Of a stretch of DNA of 64,000 nt, positions 17,006-23,991 are shown piece by piece. The notes beneath the pieces are model-generated. The model made no database searches. It was not told where the DNA came from and saw only the letters and a program-made list of their open reading frames with translations. The first letter of the stretch is position 1, and each line of letters starts with the position of its first letter. Made by a program: the position numbers and the translations under genes. Source of the DNA: Solirubrobacterales bacterium (GTDB lineage Bacteria > Actinomycetota > Thermoleophilia > Solirubrobacterales > Solirubrobacteraceae); assembly GCA_027451345.1 (NCBI GenBank), contig DAIDJO010000108.1, positions 1-64,000 on the forward strand, in the 5' to 3' direction.

Positions 17006-19042
17006 CTATCCGGCGGATTCGAGCGCGCGTCGCACCCGTGCCGGCGTCTCGAGGCCGTCGCGGAAGGCGCGCCCGGCGTCGAGCGCTGCGGCGCCCGCCG
17101 CCCCGCCGATCACCACGTGCGGCCGCCCGCGGGCGGCGAGCGTCTCGGCCAGCGACCGGTCCGCCTCCTGTCCGGCGGCGACGATCACGGTGTCGGCCGG
17201 GATGCGCCGCTCACCCTCCTCGGTCCGCACGACGACCGCATCGGGTTCGATCCGCTCGTAGTCGACGCCGGTGACGAGCTCGACCCCGGCCCGCTGGAGC
17301 TCCTGGACGACGACCCAGCGGGTCGAGGCGCCGACGCCGTCCCCGATCCGCCCGCTGCGACGCATCAGGGTGATCTGCCCCGGCCACCCCGCTTCGGTGG
17401 GCCGAATACCACCCAGGGTGTGGATTTGGCCCACCGCAGGGGGCTCCAGGCCGTAGCGCTCGTAGAAGCCGTCGTGGGTGGAGAGCAGGTGCGCGATGTC
17501 GGTGCCGATTCCGCCCGCGCCGATGATCGCCACCCGCTCGCCGACGAGCGCCGCCGGGTCCTCCGCCAGGAGCAGCTCGGGATAGCTGAGGACGTGGGGG
17601 AGCTCCGCCCCCGGGATCGGCACCCGTCGGGGCTGCACGCCGGTGGCGACCACCACGACGGCGAACGCCGTGAGGTCCTCCGCCTCGACGCGGCGCCCGA
17701 GCGTCACCTCGACGCCGAGACGCGCCAGCTCGTCGGCGAAGTAGCCTCCCGTGTGCCCGAAGTCCTCCTTGCCCGGGATGCGGCAGGCCATGCGGAACTG
17801 GCCGCCGAGCGCCTTGGCCGCCTCGAACAGCGCGACGGACCAGCCGGCGCTCGCGAGCGCCCGCGCCGCCTCCATCCCGGCCGGCCCGCCGCCGACGACG
17901 GCGACGCGGGCGACCGTGCCCGCCGGCGGGTCACCGTCGACCGGATCGAGCTCGTACCCGGCCCGGGGGTTCACGGCGCAGGAGACACGCCGGTCGAAGA
18001 TCGATTGGTCGATGCACTGGTTGCAGGCGATGCACACGTTCACCCGTCCCGTCCCGCCGCGGCTCCGGCGCACGAGGCCGGGGTCGGCGAGGAACGGTCG
18101 CGCCATCGAGACGAAGTCGGCGTGCCCGTCGCGCACCAGGACATCCGCGAGCGCCACCCGGTTGACCCGGTTGGAGGCGACCACCGGCACCGGCACGGCG
18201 GCGCGGACCGCCGCCGCCCACGGGGCCCAGGCGCCGTGCGGCACGACCGACTGCACGGTCGGAACGCGGGATTCGTGCCATCCGATCCCGACGTTCAGCG
18301 CGTCGGCTGGCCCGCTGGCCAGCCGAGCGGCCAGCGCGATCACCTCCTCCAGGGACGCCCCGCCCGGGACCAGGTCGGCGCCGGAGATCCGGTAGACAAC
18401 CGCGCCCGCGGGGTCGACGGCCTCGCGCACCGCCGCCGCGACCGCCAGCGGGAACCGCATCCTGCCCTCGAGGTCGCCACCCCACGCGTCGTCGCGGTGG
18501 TTGGTGGCGGGCGCCATGAACTGGCTGAGCAGGTAGCCCTCGGAGCCCATGATCTCGACGCCGTCAAAGCCGAGCTCGCGAGCCCGCGCGGCCCCGCGCG
18601 CGAAGTCATCGATCGTCTCGAGGATCTCGGCTTCGGTGAGCGCCCGCGGCTCACAGCGGCTGTACGGCGAGAAGATCCCGGACGGCGCGACCGGCTGCAG
18701 TCCGAAGGACTTCTCGAAGGCGTAGCGCCCCGCGTGGAAGAGCTGCAGCAGCACGCGGCCGCCCTCGGCGTGGACGGCGGGTGGGATCGCGCTGAGCTTC
18801 GCCGCCTCCGCCTCCTCGTTGATGAAGCTGTAGCTGACCCCGCCCGCGCCGACGCGGCTGACCGCGGAGCCGCCGGTGACGATCAGCGCCGCGCCCCCCG
18901 CGGCGCGCTCCGCGTAGAAGCGGGCGAGCCGGCGTCCGTCCGGGTCGATCGACTCGAGCCCGAGGTGCATCGAGCCCATCACGATCCGGTGCGGCAGCTC
19001 GAGCGGGCCGATCCGTCCCGGCTGCCAGATGTGCTCGAGCAA
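17006..19042 (-). CDS. NADH:flavin oxidoreductase / 2,4-dienoyl-CoA reductase-type (OYE TIM barrel + FAD/NAD domain)
   Basis: LEHIWQPGRIGPLELPHRIVMGSMHLGLE..., CIACNQCIDQSIFDRRVSCAVNPRAG Fe-S motif, VAVVGGGPAGMEAARALASAGWSVALFE, AIIGAGGIGTDIAHLL. Confidence 0.9.
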   Translation of the reverse strand: MLEHIWQPGRIGPLELPHRIVMGSMHLGLESIDPDGRRLARFYAERAAGGAALIVTGGSAVSRVGAGGVSYSFINEEAEAAKLSAIPPAVHAEGGRVLLQLFHAGRYAFEKSFGLQPVAPSGIFSPYSRCEPRALTEAEILETIDDFARGAARARELGFDGVEIMGSEGYLLSQFMAPATNHRDDAWGGDLEGRMRFPLAVAAAVREAVDPAGAVVYRISGADLVPGGASLEEVIALAARLASGPADALNVGIGWHESRVPTVQSVVPHGAWAPWAAAVRAAVPVPVVASNRVNRVALADVLVRDGHADFVSMARPFLADPGLVRRSRGGTGRVNVCIACNQCIDQSIFDRRVSCAVNPRAGYELDPVDGDPPAGTVARVAVVGGGPAGMEAARALASAGWSVALFEAAKALGGQFRMACRIPGKEDFGHTGGYFADELARLGVEVTLGRRVEAEDLTAFAVVVVATGVQPRRVPIPGAELPHVLSYPELLLAEDPAALVGERVAIIGAGGIGTDIAHLLSTHDGFYERYGLEPPAVGQIHTLGGIRPTEAGWPGQITLMRRSGRIGDGVGASTRWVVVQELQRAGVELVTGVDYERIEPDAVVVRTEEGERRIPADTVIVAAGQEADRSLAETLAARGRPHVVIGGAAGAAALDAGRAFRDGLETPARVRRALESAG

Positions 19043-19048
19043 CGAACG

Positions 19049-20215
19049 CTACGCCAGCAGCTCGCGCGCGATCGTCTGCTTCTGGATCTCCACGGTGCCC
19101 TCCTCGAACCGCTGCGCCCGTGCGTCCCGGTACACGCGCTCGATCGGGCTCTTGAAGAAGCCGATCCCGCCGAAGACCTGGAGCGCCCCGTCGGTGACGC
19201 GCTGGAGCATCTCGGAGGCGAACAGCTTCGCCATCGACGACTCCTTGGCCCCCGCCGCCGGGTCGCACTCCCAGGTCCGCGCGGCGTGCAGCGTGAGCTG
19301 GCGCGCGGCCTCGAGGTCGGCGGCCATCTCGGCGATGCGGAAGGCGATCGCCTGCCGGGTGGCGATCGGCTTGCCGAACGTCTCGCGCTGCTTGGAGCGT
19401 TCGATCGCGAGGTCGAGCGCCTTGCTCGCCAGGCCGACGCAGGTCATCGCCACGGAGATGCGGCTCGGGACGAGGAAGCCGCCGACGGCCACCTCGAGCC
19501 CGTCGCCCTCCTCGCCGAGCCGGTTGGCCACCGGCACGGGCGCCCGGTCGAAGACGAGGTGGGCATGGTCGGTGCCGATGACGCCCATCGTGTCGGCCAT
19601 CAGGTTGTTCTGGATGCCCTCGCCTCGGGCGGGCACCATCAGCGCGACCGTTCCCTCGCCGCCGCGGGTGCCCTCGAGCCGGGCGGCGAGGAGCAGGTGG
19701 TCGGCCGTATGGCCGAAGGTGATCATGTGCTTCTGGCCGCTCAGGTAGTACGTGTCGCCCTCGCGCACCACCGAGGACTTGATGTCGGCGCCGGTGCCGG
19801 CGTTCGGCTCGGTGAGCGTGAAGGCGACGCGCATCTCGCCGCTCACCTGCGGCCGGACGAAGCGCTCGATCTGCTCATCGTTGGCGTGCGGGAGCATCGC
19901 CCGCCACAGGCCGTTGGAGACGTGGACGATCATCCGCAGCGAGGCGTGCGGCCGGGAGAAGAGCTCGATCAGCTCGAGGTAGCGGGCGAAGGGGAGGCCA
20001 CGCCCGCCGATCGAGCGCGGGGCGGCCAGACTCAGGTAGCCGCGCTCGCGCAGCTCGTCCCAGAGCTCGGGCGGGACGCGGTGCTCGGCCTCGATGCGCT
20101 CGGTCCAGGCTTCGCCCTCGTGCTCGACGTAGTCGCGGACCTCGGCCTTCAGCGTCGCGAACTCGGCCTCGTCGACCGGGGTGGGCTCGGCGTGTCCTGC
20201 GGGCACTGTCGTCAT
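19049..20215 (-). CDS. Acyl-CoA dehydrogenase
   Basis: ATG at 20215: MTTVPAGHAEPTPVDEAEFATLKAEVRDYV...FTLTEPNAGTGADIKSSVVREGDTYYLSGQKHMITFG...QVFGGIGFFKSPIERVYRDARAQRFEEGTVEIQKQTIARELL. Confidence 0.93.
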   Translation of the reverse strand: MTTVPAGHAEPTPVDEAEFATLKAEVRDYVEHEGEAWTERIEAEHRVPPELWDELRERGYLSLAAPRSIGGRGLPFARYLELIELFSRPHASLRMIVHVSNGLWRAMLPHANDEQIERFVRPQVSGEMRVAFTLTEPNAGTGADIKSSVVREGDTYYLSGQKHMITFGHTADHLLLAARLEGTRGGEGTVALMVPARGEGIQNNLMADTMGVIGTDHAHLVFDRAPVPVANRLGEEGDGLEVAVGGFLVPSRISVAMTCVGLASKALDLAIERSKQRETFGKPIATRQAIAFRIAEMAADLEAARQLTLHAARTWECDPAAGAKESSMAKLFASEMLQRVTDGALQVFGGIGFFKSPIERVYRDARAQRFEEGTVEIQKQTIARELLA

Positions 20216-21738
20216 CGGGAAGTCGCCTTTCTCTCCAGCTGGGCCGCGATCCGGTCGCGCAGCACGAATTTCTGAATCTTGCCGGACGGCGTGTAGGGAA
20301 GCTCCTCGACGATCTCGAGCCGTTCGGGCCAGTACGGCTTCGACACCCGTCGCGCGTCGAGGTGTCGTTGCATCATGTCGAAGTCGAACGACGCGCCGGG
20401 GGCCGGCACGACAAAGGCGCACGCCCGCTCCCCGAGGCGCGCGTCGGGCATCGCCACGATCGCGACCTCGCGCACCGCGGGGTGGGCGTAGAGCTCCTGC
20501 TCGATCTCCACGACCGGCACCTTCTCGCCGCCGCGGTTGATCACGTCCTTCACCCGGCCGGTGATCCGCAGGTAACCGTCGGCGTCGATCCGGGCGAGGT
20601 CCCCCGTGCGGTAGTACCCGTCGGCGGTGAGCGCCTGCGCGGTCAGGTCCGGGCGGTTGAGGTAGCCCTGGAAGAGGGTGGGGGTGAGGACCTCGAAGTG
20701 CCCCTCCTCGTCGGGGCCGAGGGTGCGGCCGGCGTCGTCGGTGACCCGCAGCGTGATCCCCTCGAGGGCGCGCCCGTCGGTGCTCCAGGCGCGGTCCGGA
20801 TCCTCCCCCGGCACGAACGCCGCCCCGAGGCAGCTCTCGGTCGTGCCGAAGGCGCCACCCACGTCGGCGCCGAGCGCGTCGCGGGCGGTCCGCGCGAGCT
20901 CCCGGGGGATCGCGGTGCCGGTGGCGACGAAGGTCCGCAGCGCGGGCAGTGTCTCGCCGCGGGCCGAGGCGGTGCCGACGAGGTCGGCCAGGAACGGTGT
21001 GGCCGCCTGCACGAACGTCACCCCGTGGGCGCGCATCGCCTGGAAGCCGATCTCGGCGTCCCAGGTCGTCTGGATCACCTGTGGGGCGCCGAGCCTCAGG
21101 GCGATCCACATCCCGTACAGGAAGCCGGTCTGGTGCGCGATCGGGGACGGGATGTAGATGACGTCCTCGGCGCTCAGGTCGAAGTGGCGGATGTGCATCT
21201 CCGCGGCGAGGTTGAGCGACGCATGGGTCTGCAGGACGCCCTTCGGCTCGCCCGTCGAGCCGGAGGTGAAGAGCAGCTGGGCGCTCGCCTGCTCCCCGGG
21301 GGCGGGCGGCGGCGTCTGGGGCCGGGGCGGGTCGACCTCGTCGAGCACGACGACGTGCTGGAGCGAGGGGACCGCGCGCTGCAGGCCATGTGCCATGGCG
21401 CCGTGATCGTGGCGACGGAACTCCCTCGGCACGATCAGCACGCGGGTCTCGCCGGCGCGGAGCATGAACGCGAGCTCGCGCTCGCGGAAGATCGGCATGA
21501 GCGGCTCGCAGACCGCGCCGATGCGCAGCGTCGCCAGCGAGATGGCGACGAACTCGAGCACGTTGGGCAGCTGGTAGGCGACCGGCTCGCCGGGGATCAC
21601 GCCCCGTTCGAGCAGCAGCTCGGTGAAGCGCTCGGTGGCCGCCTCGAGCTGGCCGAACGTCCACTCGCGACTGCGCCCGCCCTCACCGACCTCCACCACC
21701 GCACGATCGTCGGGCCGCTCGCGGGCGTGCTGACCCAC
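20212..21738 (-). CDS. AMP-binding acyl-CoA synthetase/ligase
   Basis: QLLFTSGSTGEPKGVLQTH, GTTESCLGAAF, YYRTGDLARIDADGYLRITGRVKDVINRGGEKV, PYTPSGKIQKFVLRD; GTG start; 4-bp overlap with the downstream ACAD. Confidence 0.93.
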   Translation of the reverse strand: MGQHARERPDDRAVVEVGEGGRSREWTFGQLEAATERFTELLLERGVIPGEPVAYQLPNVLEFVAISLATLRIGAVCEPLMPIFRERELAFMLRAGETRVLIVPREFRRHDHGAMAHGLQRAVPSLQHVVVLDEVDPPRPQTPPPAPGEQASAQLLFTSGSTGEPKGVLQTHASLNLAAEMHIRHFDLSAEDVIYIPSPIAHQTGFLYGMWIALRLGAPQVIQTTWDAEIGFQAMRAHGVTFVQAATPFLADLVGTASARGETLPALRTFVATGTAIPRELARTARDALGADVGGAFGTTESCLGAAFVPGEDPDRAWSTDGRALEGITLRVTDDAGRTLGPDEEGHFEVLTPTLFQGYLNRPDLTAQALTADGYYRTGDLARIDADGYLRITGRVKDVINRGGEKVPVVEIEQELYAHPAVREVAIVAMPDARLGERACAFVVPAPGASFDFDMMQRHLDARRVSKPYWPERLEIVEELPYTPSGKIQKFVLRDRIAAQLERKATSR

Positions 21739-21761
21739 GAGCTCGGTGATCAGCGGCCGGC

Positions 21762-23087
21762 CTATGCCAGCTCTCCCGGCGCGCTCGGGACCTCGCTGGT
21801 GACGGCAATGGGGATGCCGATCGCGTTCATGTGGTCGGCAAACTCGGGGTACGAGATCCGGTACGCGTGCGGGTAGGAGAGGCCGGTCACGCCGGTGGCC
21901 GTCGAGCCGGCGACGGCGAGGGCCATCAGCACGCGATGGTCGTTGTAGGAGGAGAGCTCGGCGCCGTGCAGGTGATCGACGCCGTCGAACTCCATGTCGT
22001 TGCCGTCGAACTCCACGCGCGCGCCCATCTTGCGCAGCTGCAGCATCGAGGTGACGCGATCGGACTCCTTCAGGCGGACGTGCGAGACGTGCGAGAGCAC
22101 TGTGCGCCCGCGGGCGCGGCTGGCCAGGGTGGAGAGGATCGGGACCATGTCGGGGATGTCGCGGCAGTCGAGCCGCCCGGCCACCGGCGGCGTGCCGTCG
22201 TGGTCGATCGAGATCGACAGCCCGTCGGGGGCGAAGCGCATCGGCACCCCGACGCCCTGCAGCTCGGTGAGCACCGAGGCTTCGGGGTGCCCGTGGATCG
22301 GCACGTGCGAGCGGAACACGACCTTCGAGGGGTGCAGCGCGCAGGCGGCCAGGCCGAAGGCGGCCGACCCGATGTCCGGTGGGAGCAGGTAGTTCTCACG
22401 CGGCCGCGGCGTCTGGTTCGGGGGCACGGTGAAGTGCCGCCAGTCCTCCCCGACCGTGACCTCGAGCCCGAAGTCCCGCATCATCTCGACGGTGAGTTCG
22501 AGGTAGGGGCGCTCGTTCAGCTCCCCGACGACCTCGATCCGCGTCTCCTCCTCGGTGGCGAAGGGGGCGATCATCAGCAGTCCGGAGATCCACTGCGAGA
22601 GCGTGCCGTCGATGCGGACGTGACCGCCCCGCGGGCGGCCCGGGTGAACGGTGACGGGCAGCGTCTGGCCCTCGTACTCGAGCTCGACGCCGAGCCGCTG
22701 GAGGGCTCGGAGCAGCGGCCCGATCGGGCGCCGGCGGAAATACCGCTGCCCGACGATCGTCACCGGGCGATCCCCGAGCGCGGCGAGGCCGAGCAGGAAG
22801 TAGAGCGTCGTCCCCGAGCTGCCGACCGAGACCTGGTCGTGGCGGGGGGAGAACCCGCTCGCGCCGTTGACCGTCCAATGGCGCCCGCTCGCGGTGATGT
22901 CGACGCCGAGACCGCGCAGCGCCTGGACCGTGAAGCTCACGTGGCGAGCGTCGGTGCGGTCGGCGATCGTGCTCACGCCCGGCGCCAGCGCGGCGAGCAT
23001 CAGCGCCCGGTGGGCGTGGTACTTCGACGGCGGGATGACGAGCTCGCCCTGCAGCGGCGCCGGCGCGCCGGCTACGAGCAGGCGCAT
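21762..23087 (-). CDS. EPSP synthase-like (AroA-fold) protein with altered active-site residues
   Basis: ELVIPPSKYHAHRALMLAAL, VGSSGTTLYFLLGLAALGD, RRRPIGPLLRALQRLGVELEY, DGTLSQWISGLLMIAP, DCRDIPDMVPILSTLAS, VRLKESDRVTSMLQLRKMGARVEF, SYNDHRVLMALAVAG. Confidence 0.85.
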   Translation of the reverse strand: MRLLVAGAPAPLQGELVIPPSKYHAHRALMLAALAPGVSTIADRTDARHVSFTVQALRGLGVDITASGRHWTVNGASGFSPRHDQVSVGSSGTTLYFLLGLAALGDRPVTIVGQRYFRRRPIGPLLRALQRLGVELEYEGQTLPVTVHPGRPRGGHVRIDGTLSQWISGLLMIAPFATEEETRIEVVGELNERPYLELTVEMMRDFGLEVTVGEDWRHFTVPPNQTPRPRENYLLPPDIGSAAFGLAACALHPSKVVFRSHVPIHGHPEASVLTELQGVGVPMRFAPDGLSISIDHDGTPPVAGRLDCRDIPDMVPILSTLASRARGRTVLSHVSHVRLKESDRVTSMLQLRKMGARVEFDGNDMEFDGVDHLHGAELSSYNDHRVLMALAVAGSTATGVTGLSYPHAYRISYPEFADHMNAIGIPIAVTSEVPSAPGELA

Positions 23088-23109
23088 ACGACGGCGGTCG
23101 GCGGCACGG

Positions 23110-23991
23110 TCATGGCCGGGAGAGTATCTCGCGCAGCTGCGCCAGTTGGGGAATCTGGGCGGTCGGCTCCCCCGTCAGGGGGGTGAGAACGAACTCCTCG
23201 ACGCCCGCCTCGGCGTAGGCGGCGATCCGCTCGGCGACGCGGTCGGCGCTGCCGACGGGGGTGTAGCGGGCCACCTTCTCGAACGGCATCCCGTACATCG
23301 CCCGCGTGTAATCCTCGGCCGCCTCCCGGGCACGGCCCTCGTTGGCGTCGACATGGACGCTCAGCGCCAGCCCGAGCCGGGGGCACGGCCGGCCGAGCGC
23401 CTGCGCCTGCGCCGCGAGGCTCTCCCGGCCCTCGCGCAACCGTTCCGGGCTCATCCAGGTCGCCAGCCAGCCGTCGCCCAGGCGCGCGGCACGCCGCAGG
23501 GCGGCGTCGCTGCGTCCGCCGACCCAGACCGGAGGCAGCGCGCTGATCGGCGGGGAGAGCGCAGGGGTGGTGCGCCCGGAGAGCCAGTCCGGGAGCTCGG
23601 CCAGCGCCCGGTCGAGGAGCCGCCCGCGCTGGTGGACGTCGAGTCCGAGTGCCTCGAACTCCGCCGGGAACTCGCCGCCGACGCCGACGCCGAGGATGAG
23701 GCGCCCGGGGGCGAGGGCGTCGATCGTCGTCAGCTGCTTGGCCACCCACGCGGGGTGGCGCAGCCCGAGCAGCAGCACGCCGAAGCCGAGCTGGACCCGT
23801 TGGGTGCGCGCCGCGACGGCGGCGATCGCCACCATCGAGTCATAGACCGGCGAGGGCACGTGCAGGTGGTCGCCGACCCACACGGCGTCGAAGCCGAGTT
23901 CCTCCGTCAGGCGGGCCGCATCGACGAAGCGGGGGCGTCCGCCGACCAGCAGCGGGTCGAACGTCGGGAGGTTGATGCCGAGTCGTGGCAC
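23110..23991 (-). CDS. LLM-class (F420/FMN-dependent) oxidoreductase
   Basis: LGINLPTFDPLLVGGRPRFVDAARLTEELGFDAVWVGDHLHVP...LGFGVLLLGLRHPAWVAKQLTTIDALAPGRLILGVGVGG...PPVWVGGRSDAALRRAARLGDGWLA. Confidence 0.88.
   Translation of the reverse strand: MPRLGINLPTFDPLLVGGRPRFVDAARLTEELGFDAVWVGDHLHVPSPVYDSMVAIAAVAARTQRVQLGFGVLLLGLRHPAWVAKQLTTIDALAPGRLILGVGVGGEFPAEFEALGLDVHQRGRLLDRALAELPDWLSGRTTPALSPPISALPPVWVGGRSDAALRRAARLGDGWLATWMSPERLREGRESLAAQAQALGRPCPRLGLALSVHVDANEGRAREAAEDYTRAMYGMPFEKVARYTPVGSADRVAERIAAYAEAGVEEFVLTPLTGEPTAQIPQLAQLREILSRP

What the first reader, a model, noticed from the sequence alone, without database searches (positions are those of the whole stretch)
17006..23991. Five-gene operon resembling a shikimate-derived cyclohexanecarboxyl-CoA (CHC-CoA) cassette
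Seen: five co-directional genes with gaps of 22, 23, -4 and 6 bp: LLM/F420-type oxidoreductase, EPSP-synthase-like protein, AMP-dependent CoA ligase, acyl-CoA dehydrogenase, 2,4-dienoyl-CoA-reductase-type flavoprotein. An AroA homologue has no obvious role in fatty-acid breakdown. Established knowledge (from memory, not checked): Streptomyces ansatrienin/phoslactomycin-type CHC-CoA cassettes turn shikimate into a ring-saturated acyl-CoA starter and contain a similar set of CoA ligase, dehydrogenase/reductase and EPSP-synthase-like genes; CHC-CoA also primes omega-cyclohexyl fatty acids in Alicyclobacillus. Inference: this operon makes an alicyclic acyl-CoA from shikimate, possibly with the LLM oxidoreductase in place of the ChcA-type enoyl reductase, to feed lipids or an unknown metabolite.
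Basis: partly seen in the sequence, partly recalled or inferred. Interest (0 to 1): 0.8.

Follow-up and report, generated by a model that had tools for sequence, protein, structure and literature searches.

The report
Shikimate-to-cyclohexanecarboxyl-CoA operon, alternative reductase
This soil/acid-mine bacterium carries the gene set that other bacteria use to turn the aromatic precursor shikimate into a saturated six-ring fatty-acid starter, but with the usual last-step reductase gene missing and a luciferase-type (probably F420-using) enzyme gene in its place.

Summary
The five genes, coordinates and gaps are real. The operon belongs to the cyclohexanecarboxyl-CoA (CHC-CoA) cassette family. 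Its EPSP-synthase-like protein falls in a fully supported clade (100/100) with proteins encoded beside polyketide synthases in Streptomyces. It is clearly separate from the genome's own aroA (tyrA-aroA-cmk, 34% identical). The order EPSP-like, ligase, acyl-CoA dehydrogenase, (SDR), OYE flavoprotein equals the published phoslactomycin order plmJK-plmL-chcA-plmM. Across 86 members compared, shared changes argue against EPSP synthesis: Asp49 is lost, Ser169 is deleted, Ser197 is Glu, Ser23 is Tyr, Arg100 is Tyr.

New here: in the window and eight congeners, no ChcA-type SDR was detected anywhere in the genome, and an LLM oxidoreductase gene opens the operon instead. Five congeners have the SDR and not this LLM; none has both. 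Among 61 sufficiently complete cassettes, 52 have the SDR only, 6 the LLM only, 3 neither, 0 both. Acidimicrobiaceae-type MAGs show the same swap. FbiC (F420 synthesis) is present. No polyketide dehydratase domain was found and FabH is single, so the likely sink is omega-cyclohexyl fatty acids.

Untested: product, LLM cofactor and substrate.

The parts
23110..23991 (-). LLM-class (luciferase-like) oxidoreductase, TIGR03619 family; proposed F420H2-dependent reductase in the ChcA role
21762..23087 (-). EPSP-synthase-like protein of the CHC clade (N-terminal part of PlmJK-type fused proteins); proposed shikimate lyase/dehydratase, not an EPSP synthase
20212..21738 (-). AMP-dependent acyl-CoA ligase (C-terminal part of PlmJK-type fused proteins; separate gene here)
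19049..20215 (-). acyl-CoA dehydrogenase, PlmL-type; overlaps the ligase gene by 4 bp
17006..19042 (-). OYE / 2,4-dienoyl-CoA reductase-type Fe-S flavoprotein, PlmM-type; TTG start

Best explanation
The operon is a variant CHC-CoA (alicyclic acyl-CoA) biosynthesis cassette. Shown: sequence kinship, gene order and co-conservation with cassettes next to Streptomyces polyketide synthases; loss of features needed for EPSP synthesis; absence of a detectable ChcA-type SDR, with an LLM gene in its place. Inferred chemistry: the EPSP-like protein removes hydroxyls from shikimate by elimination, reusing the retained K22/R27/R124/D313/E341 acid-base set while the phosphate-binding sites are remodelled. 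The ligase makes the CoA ester. The acyl-CoA dehydrogenase and OYE flavoprotein shift and reduce the ring double bonds. The LLM enzyme, probably with F420H2, does the enoyl-thioester reduction(s) that ChcA does elsewhere. By formula, shikimate C7H10O5 to cyclohexanecarboxylate C7H12O2 needs three dehydrations and four two-electron reductions; the EPSP-like protein is the only non-redox, non-ligase enzyme in the cassette. The product most likely primes FabH to make omega-cyclohexyl membrane fatty acids.
For: The EPSP-like proteins form one clade (47 rows, 100/100) apart from 28 AroAs; scores are bimodal, 427-885 versus at most 177 bits. The Streptomyces order EPSP/LIG-ACAD-SDR-OYE equals plmJK-plmL-chcA-plmM (PMC5852498). 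S. sioyaensis L135 has a modular PKS immediately upstream and a LuxR regulator immediately downstream; Actinoplanes L109 also has a PKS upstream. Clade-wide changes D49H/Q, S169 deleted, S197E, S23Y, R100Y; D49A costs E. coli EPSPS 24,000-fold (PMC8694188). Own paralogues of ACAD and ligase are at most 34% identical over full length, while CHC ACADs of other taxa are 58-68%. SDR/LLM exclusion: 5 versus 9 congeners, none with both; 52/6/3/0 across loci; no SDR in the three Acidimicrobiaceae-type genomes with an adjacent LLM. FbiC present in the own genome. LLM-fold F420H2 reductases that reduce C=C bonds are known (Apd6, LxmJ; PMC8498797). No PKS dehydratase domain in 9 cassette genomes; single FabH in the own genome. 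Herbiconiux and Curtobacterium, which carry the cassette, are reported to include cyclohexyl-fatty-acid members (PMC10011130; a reference title in PMC5118839).
Against: No biochemistry or lipid data for this organism. The LLM structural matches mix FMN monooxygenases and F420 reductases, so the cofactor is open. The cassette LLMs do not form one well-supported clade and lie close to a non-cassette paralogue. Three sufficiently complete cassettes have neither SDR nor this LLM, so neither may be strictly needed. The OYE orthologue is not found in some cassette genomes (G003, G007, G020 among incomplete ones; G158 and G169; only a 44% match in G015). No plm/ans reference sequence was available for direct alignment.
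Confidence: 0.78

Rival explanations
1. CHC-type cassette, but LLM-type operons make a different end product. The last ring double bond is not reduced, or the ring is hydroxylated by a flavin LLM monooxygenase, giving a cyclohexenyl or hydroxy-cyclohexyl acyl-CoA.
For: The LLM fold includes FMNH2 monooxygenases, which are top structural matches. SDR is absent from LLM-type genomes.
Against: Swap with an enoyl reductase in otherwise identical operons; F420 synthesis present; NCBIfam best match is an F420 LLM subfamily and the best solved relatives by profile are Mer (methylene-H4MPT reductase) enzymes.
Confidence: 0.15
2. The product is CHC-CoA but it primes a secondary metabolite, as in ansatrienin/phoslactomycin-type pathways, not fatty acids.
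For: Homologous cassettes sit next to PKS genes in Streptomyces and Actinoplanes.
Against: No PKS PS-DH domain in the own genome or 8 relatives; flanks of the operon are a helicase and a release-factor gene. The own assembly is about 85% complete, but single-contig congeners G012 and G015 also lack PS-DH.
Confidence: 0.15
3. A degradation operon for cyclohexanecarboxylate or other alicyclic/aromatic acids (ali/bad type), with an accidental aroA duplicate.
For: The ligase's best curated match is the cyclohexanecarboxylate-CoA ligase model TIGR03208.
Against: That match (484 of 792 bits) and TIGR03207 (127 of 575 bits) are far under cut-off; no ring-opening enzymes in the operon; the EPSP-like protein is in a cassette-specific clade conserved over several phyla.
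Confidence: 0.04
4. A second, alternative EPSP synthase (for example glyphosate-insensitive) that happens to lie among fatty-acid genes.
For: Passes the TIGR01356 aroA cut-off (302 versus 287 bits).
Against: Clade-wide changes at S23, D49, N94, R100, S169, S197 and K411; canonical aroA present; consistent fusion or adjacency to a CoA ligase.
Confidence: 0.02

Closest known systems
Phoslactomycin/lactomycin CHC-CoA genes plmJK-plmL-chcA-plmM (PMC5852498)
   Same: Same order of ligase (fused to EPSP-like in Streptomyces homologues), acyl-CoA dehydrogenase, reductase slot, NADH:FMN/OYE oxidoreductase.
   Different: EPSP-like and ligase are separate genes; no ChcA-type SDR; an LLM gene heads the operon; no PKS nearby and no PS-DH domain found in the genome.
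Shikimate-derived omega-cyclohexyl fatty acid synthesis in Alicyclobacillus/Sulfobacillus (PMC3035248, PMC4378227)
   Same: Proposed precursor (shikimate) and proposed lipid end use.
   Different: Their genes could not be compared here; lipids of the window's organism are unknown.
F420H2-dependent LLHT reductases Apd6 and LxmJ (PMC8498797)
   Same: LLM-fold enzymes that reduce C=C bonds in biosynthetic clusters.
   Different: Substrates are proline derivatives and dehydroalanine, not an enoyl-CoA; cofactor of the window protein untested.
Canonical AroA (EPSP synthase)
   Same: Fold family and most of the catalytic acid-base residues.
   Different: Separate clade; S23, D49, R100, S169, S197 and K411 changed.

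Membership tests
CHC-CoA biosynthesis cassette (plm/ans type) | EPSP-synthase-like protein of the cassette clade | tested here: met
   Clade 100/100 including PKS-adjacent Streptomyces sequences; 50-57% identity outside the genus
CHC-CoA biosynthesis cassette (plm/ans type) | CoA ligase next to or fused with the EPSP-like protein | tested here: met
   Separate, 23 bp apart; fused in congener L046 and most other taxa
CHC-CoA biosynthesis cassette (plm/ans type) | PlmL-type acyl-CoA dehydrogenase | tested here: met
   58-68% identity to cassette ACADs outside the genus, at most 34% to own paralogues
CHC-CoA biosynthesis cassette (plm/ans type) | ChcA (SDR-type 1-cyclohexenylcarbonyl-CoA reductase) | tested here: not met
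   No SDR match at E<=1e-45 in the own genome or in single-contig G012 and G015; LLM gene instead. The window operon is therefore filed as a variant, not a typical member
CHC-CoA biosynthesis cassette (plm/ans type) | PlmM-type OYE flavoprotein | tested here: met
   Homologue present at the 3' end of the operon
CHC-CoA biosynthesis cassette (plm/ans type) | Conversion of shikimate to CHC-CoA | not testable with these tools
   Needs feeding or enzymology
EPSP synthase (AroA) | Conserved S3P/PEP-site residues (S23, D49, R100, S169/S197, K411) | tested here: not met
   Changed in nearly all 86 cassette members
F420-dependent LLHT reductases | LLM fold | tested here: met
   TIGR03619/Mer profile matches; AF2 pLDDT 90.4 and Foldseek
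F420-dependent LLHT reductases | Uses F420 rather than FMN | tested here: inconclusive
   FbiC present; structural matches to both kinds
Cyclohexanecarboxylate degradation (ali/bad) | AliA/AliB-type ligase and dehydrogenase above curated cut-offs | tested here: not met
   TIGR03208 484 of 792 bits; TIGR03207 127 of 575 bits

The most novel reading that the evidence does not exclude
ChcA, the enoyl reductase of the shikimate-to-CHC-CoA pathway, has been replaced, in at least two separate lineages (a Conexibacter-like genus and Acidimicrobiaceae-type bacteria), by an unrelated LLM-fold F420H2-dependent enoyl-CoA reductase, supplying omega-cyclohexyl membrane lipids.
Probability: 0.5. Interest if true: 0.72.

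Novelty: new variant of a known kind. Interest (0 to 1): 0.6.

Why it matters
It would extend the shikimate-to-cyclohexane pathway from a few antibiotic producers and thermoacidophiles to Solirubrobacteraceae, Eremiobacterota and other lineages, with gene markers that predict cyclohexyl lipids from genomes. It names a testable LLM-class (F420) enoyl-thioester reductase, and shows a residue-level signature that separates the cassette's EPSP-like protein, which passes the curated aroA cut-off, from true EPSP synthase. The enzyme that takes the hydroxyls off shikimate becomes directly testable.

Tried and rejected
A housekeeping-aroA reading was rejected. A degradation reading was rejected on cut-offs and clade. 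Plasmid records gave no match at E<=1e-80. No sigma-70 promoter was found; the one terminator-like site lies inside the ligase gene and is at chance level. Literature on strains S30A1/DBS9H8 was not found. The LLM structure search did not settle FMN versus F420. The single FabH in the own genome was not analysed for specificity.
Full report
What is there. Five minus-strand genes occupy 23991-17006 with gaps of 22, 23, -4 and 6 bp. The upstream neighbour is a DEAD/MrfA-type helicase gene and the downstream one a release-factor-3-type gene; neither is metabolic. The genome is a 3.3 Mb draft in 133 contigs, about 85% complete. Its nearest named relatives are Conexibacter sp. S30A1 and DBS9H8 and Solirubrobacterales MAGs.

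The AroA-like protein is not the housekeeping enzyme. The genome has three PF00275 genes: the window one, MurA, and a canonical aroA in a tyrA-aroA-cmk context. The window protein is 34% identical to the canonical one. Orthologues at 71-90% identity are found in 15 of 27 same-genus genomes but in none of the other genera of the family and order sampled. Across the phylum there is a clean gap between 442-462 bits and at most 185 bits; over all loci, 427-885 versus at most 177 bits. A maximum-likelihood tree puts all 47 cassette sequences in one clade with 100/100 support, apart from 28 AroAs.

Residues. In 86 cassette sequences versus 40 AroAs, E. coli positions K22, R27, R124, Q171, D313, E341, R344, H385 and R386 are kept. 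S23 is Tyr, D49 is His or Gln, N94 is Ser, R100 is Tyr, S169 is deleted, S197 is Glu, and the K411 column is Ile with a basic residue usually one position before. The D49A change alone lowers E. coli EPSPS activity 24,000-fold (PMC8694188). That S169 and S197 bind the phosphate of shikimate-3-phosphate is my own knowledge of EPSPS structures. I infer a protein that no longer handles a phosphorylated shikimate but keeps an acid-base set suited to elimination chemistry.

Context in other genomes. Of 80 named loci, most show EPSP/LIG (often one fused protein of about 1000 aa)-ACAD-SDR-OYE in Streptomyces, Lentzea, Actinoplanes, Curtobacterium, Microbacterium, Sinomonas, Acidothermus and Eremiobacterota; Gammaproteobacteria MAGs have it with separate genes. 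The published phoslactomycin/lactomycin order is plmJK, plmL, chcA, plmM (PMC5852498), the same order. In S. sioyaensis (L135) a modular PKS precedes and a LuxR regulator follows; in Actinoplanes (L109) a PKS precedes. The own genome's other acyl-CoA dehydrogenases and ligases are at most 34% identical over full length, against 58-68% for cassette dehydrogenases outside the genus.

The missing ChcA and the LLM. In the genus, ChcA-type SDRs (73-79% identical to the L040 copy) occur in G007, G016, G022, G023 and G027. The operon-adjacent LLM occurs in G000, G005, G006, G012, G014, G015, G017, G020 and G024. No genome has both, and LLM genomes have no SDR hit anywhere at E<=1e-45, including the single-contig G012 and G015. 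G003 and G011 have neither next to the operon. Counting loci with enough flank: SDR only 52, LLM only 6, neither 3, both 0; Fisher p 1.5e-6, not corrected for shared ancestry. Three Acidimicrobiaceae-type MAG loci (L142, L144, L159) have an LLM 47-48% identical next to EPSP/LIG-ACAD and no SDR in the genome; their EPSP proteins (L142 and L159 in the tree) lie far from the window's clade. The genus's SDRs form one clade inside the ChcA-type tree, so an SDR-bearing ancestor is likely and the LLM form derived. The LLM tree does not decide between one and several recruitments. More distant LLM-superfamily genes also sit beside some SDR-bearing cassettes (L040, L079), so LLM genes as a class are not exclusive, only this subfamily.

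Cofactor. FbiC-type F420 synthesis is present. The NCBIfam best match is an F420 subfamily and the closest solved relatives by profile are Mer (methylene-H4MPT reductase) enzymes. The predicted structure (pLDDT 90.4) matches FMN monooxygenases and F420 reductases alike. LLM-fold F420H2 reductases that reduce C=C bonds exist (Apd6, LxmJ; PMC8498797).

Use of the product. No polyketide dehydratase domain was found in the own genome or eight relatives, and there is one FabH in the own genome. Omega-cyclohexyl fatty acids made from shikimate are known in Alicyclobacillus and Sulfobacillus (PMC3035248, PMC4378227) and listed as a low-pH membrane trait (PMC5487899). Two genera carrying the cassette, Herbiconiux and Curtobacterium, are reported to include cyclohexyl-fatty-acid members. 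H. oxytropis CPCC 203407, which lacks an SDR by our search, is not reported with it among its major acids. This makes lipids the likeliest sink; it is not shown. That the window's own organism comes from an acidic site is only suggested by the isolate names of relatives, not established.

Verdict. The operon is a CHC-CoA-type cassette with high confidence. The LLM-for-ChcA swap is well supported as a genomic pattern and moderately as a function. The product and its fate are inference.

Noticed in passing
L046:9384-12431 (G003): One congener carries EPSP-like and ligase as a single 1015-aa fusion like most other taxa, while the rest of the genus has separate genes: fusion state varies within one genus.
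   Followed up: partly
L147, L149: Herbiconiux cassettes with EPSP-like, ligase and dehydrogenase but no SDR, OYE or LLM nearby; no SDR found elsewhere in the L149 genome.
   Followed up: partly
L112, L114, L117, L131, L148, L153: Gammaproteobacteria MAG contigs bearing the cassette, and many Eremiobacterota: possible wide horizontal spread (or binning error).
   Followed up: no
L163:3871-4710 (own genome C72): A 48% identical LLM paralogue lies directly before another AMP-binding CoA ligase, a possible source of the cassette LLM.
   Followed up: partly
L152, L154, L156: CHC-clade EPSP-like genes in Streptomyces and Lentzea without the usual acyl-CoA dehydrogenase next to them; may belong to other biosynthetic clusters.
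   Followed up: no
L127:17368-20356: In several Streptomyces the cassette is followed by a gene of ketoacyl-synthase size (confirmed by Pfam in L127) and a second AMP ligase.
   Followed up: partly
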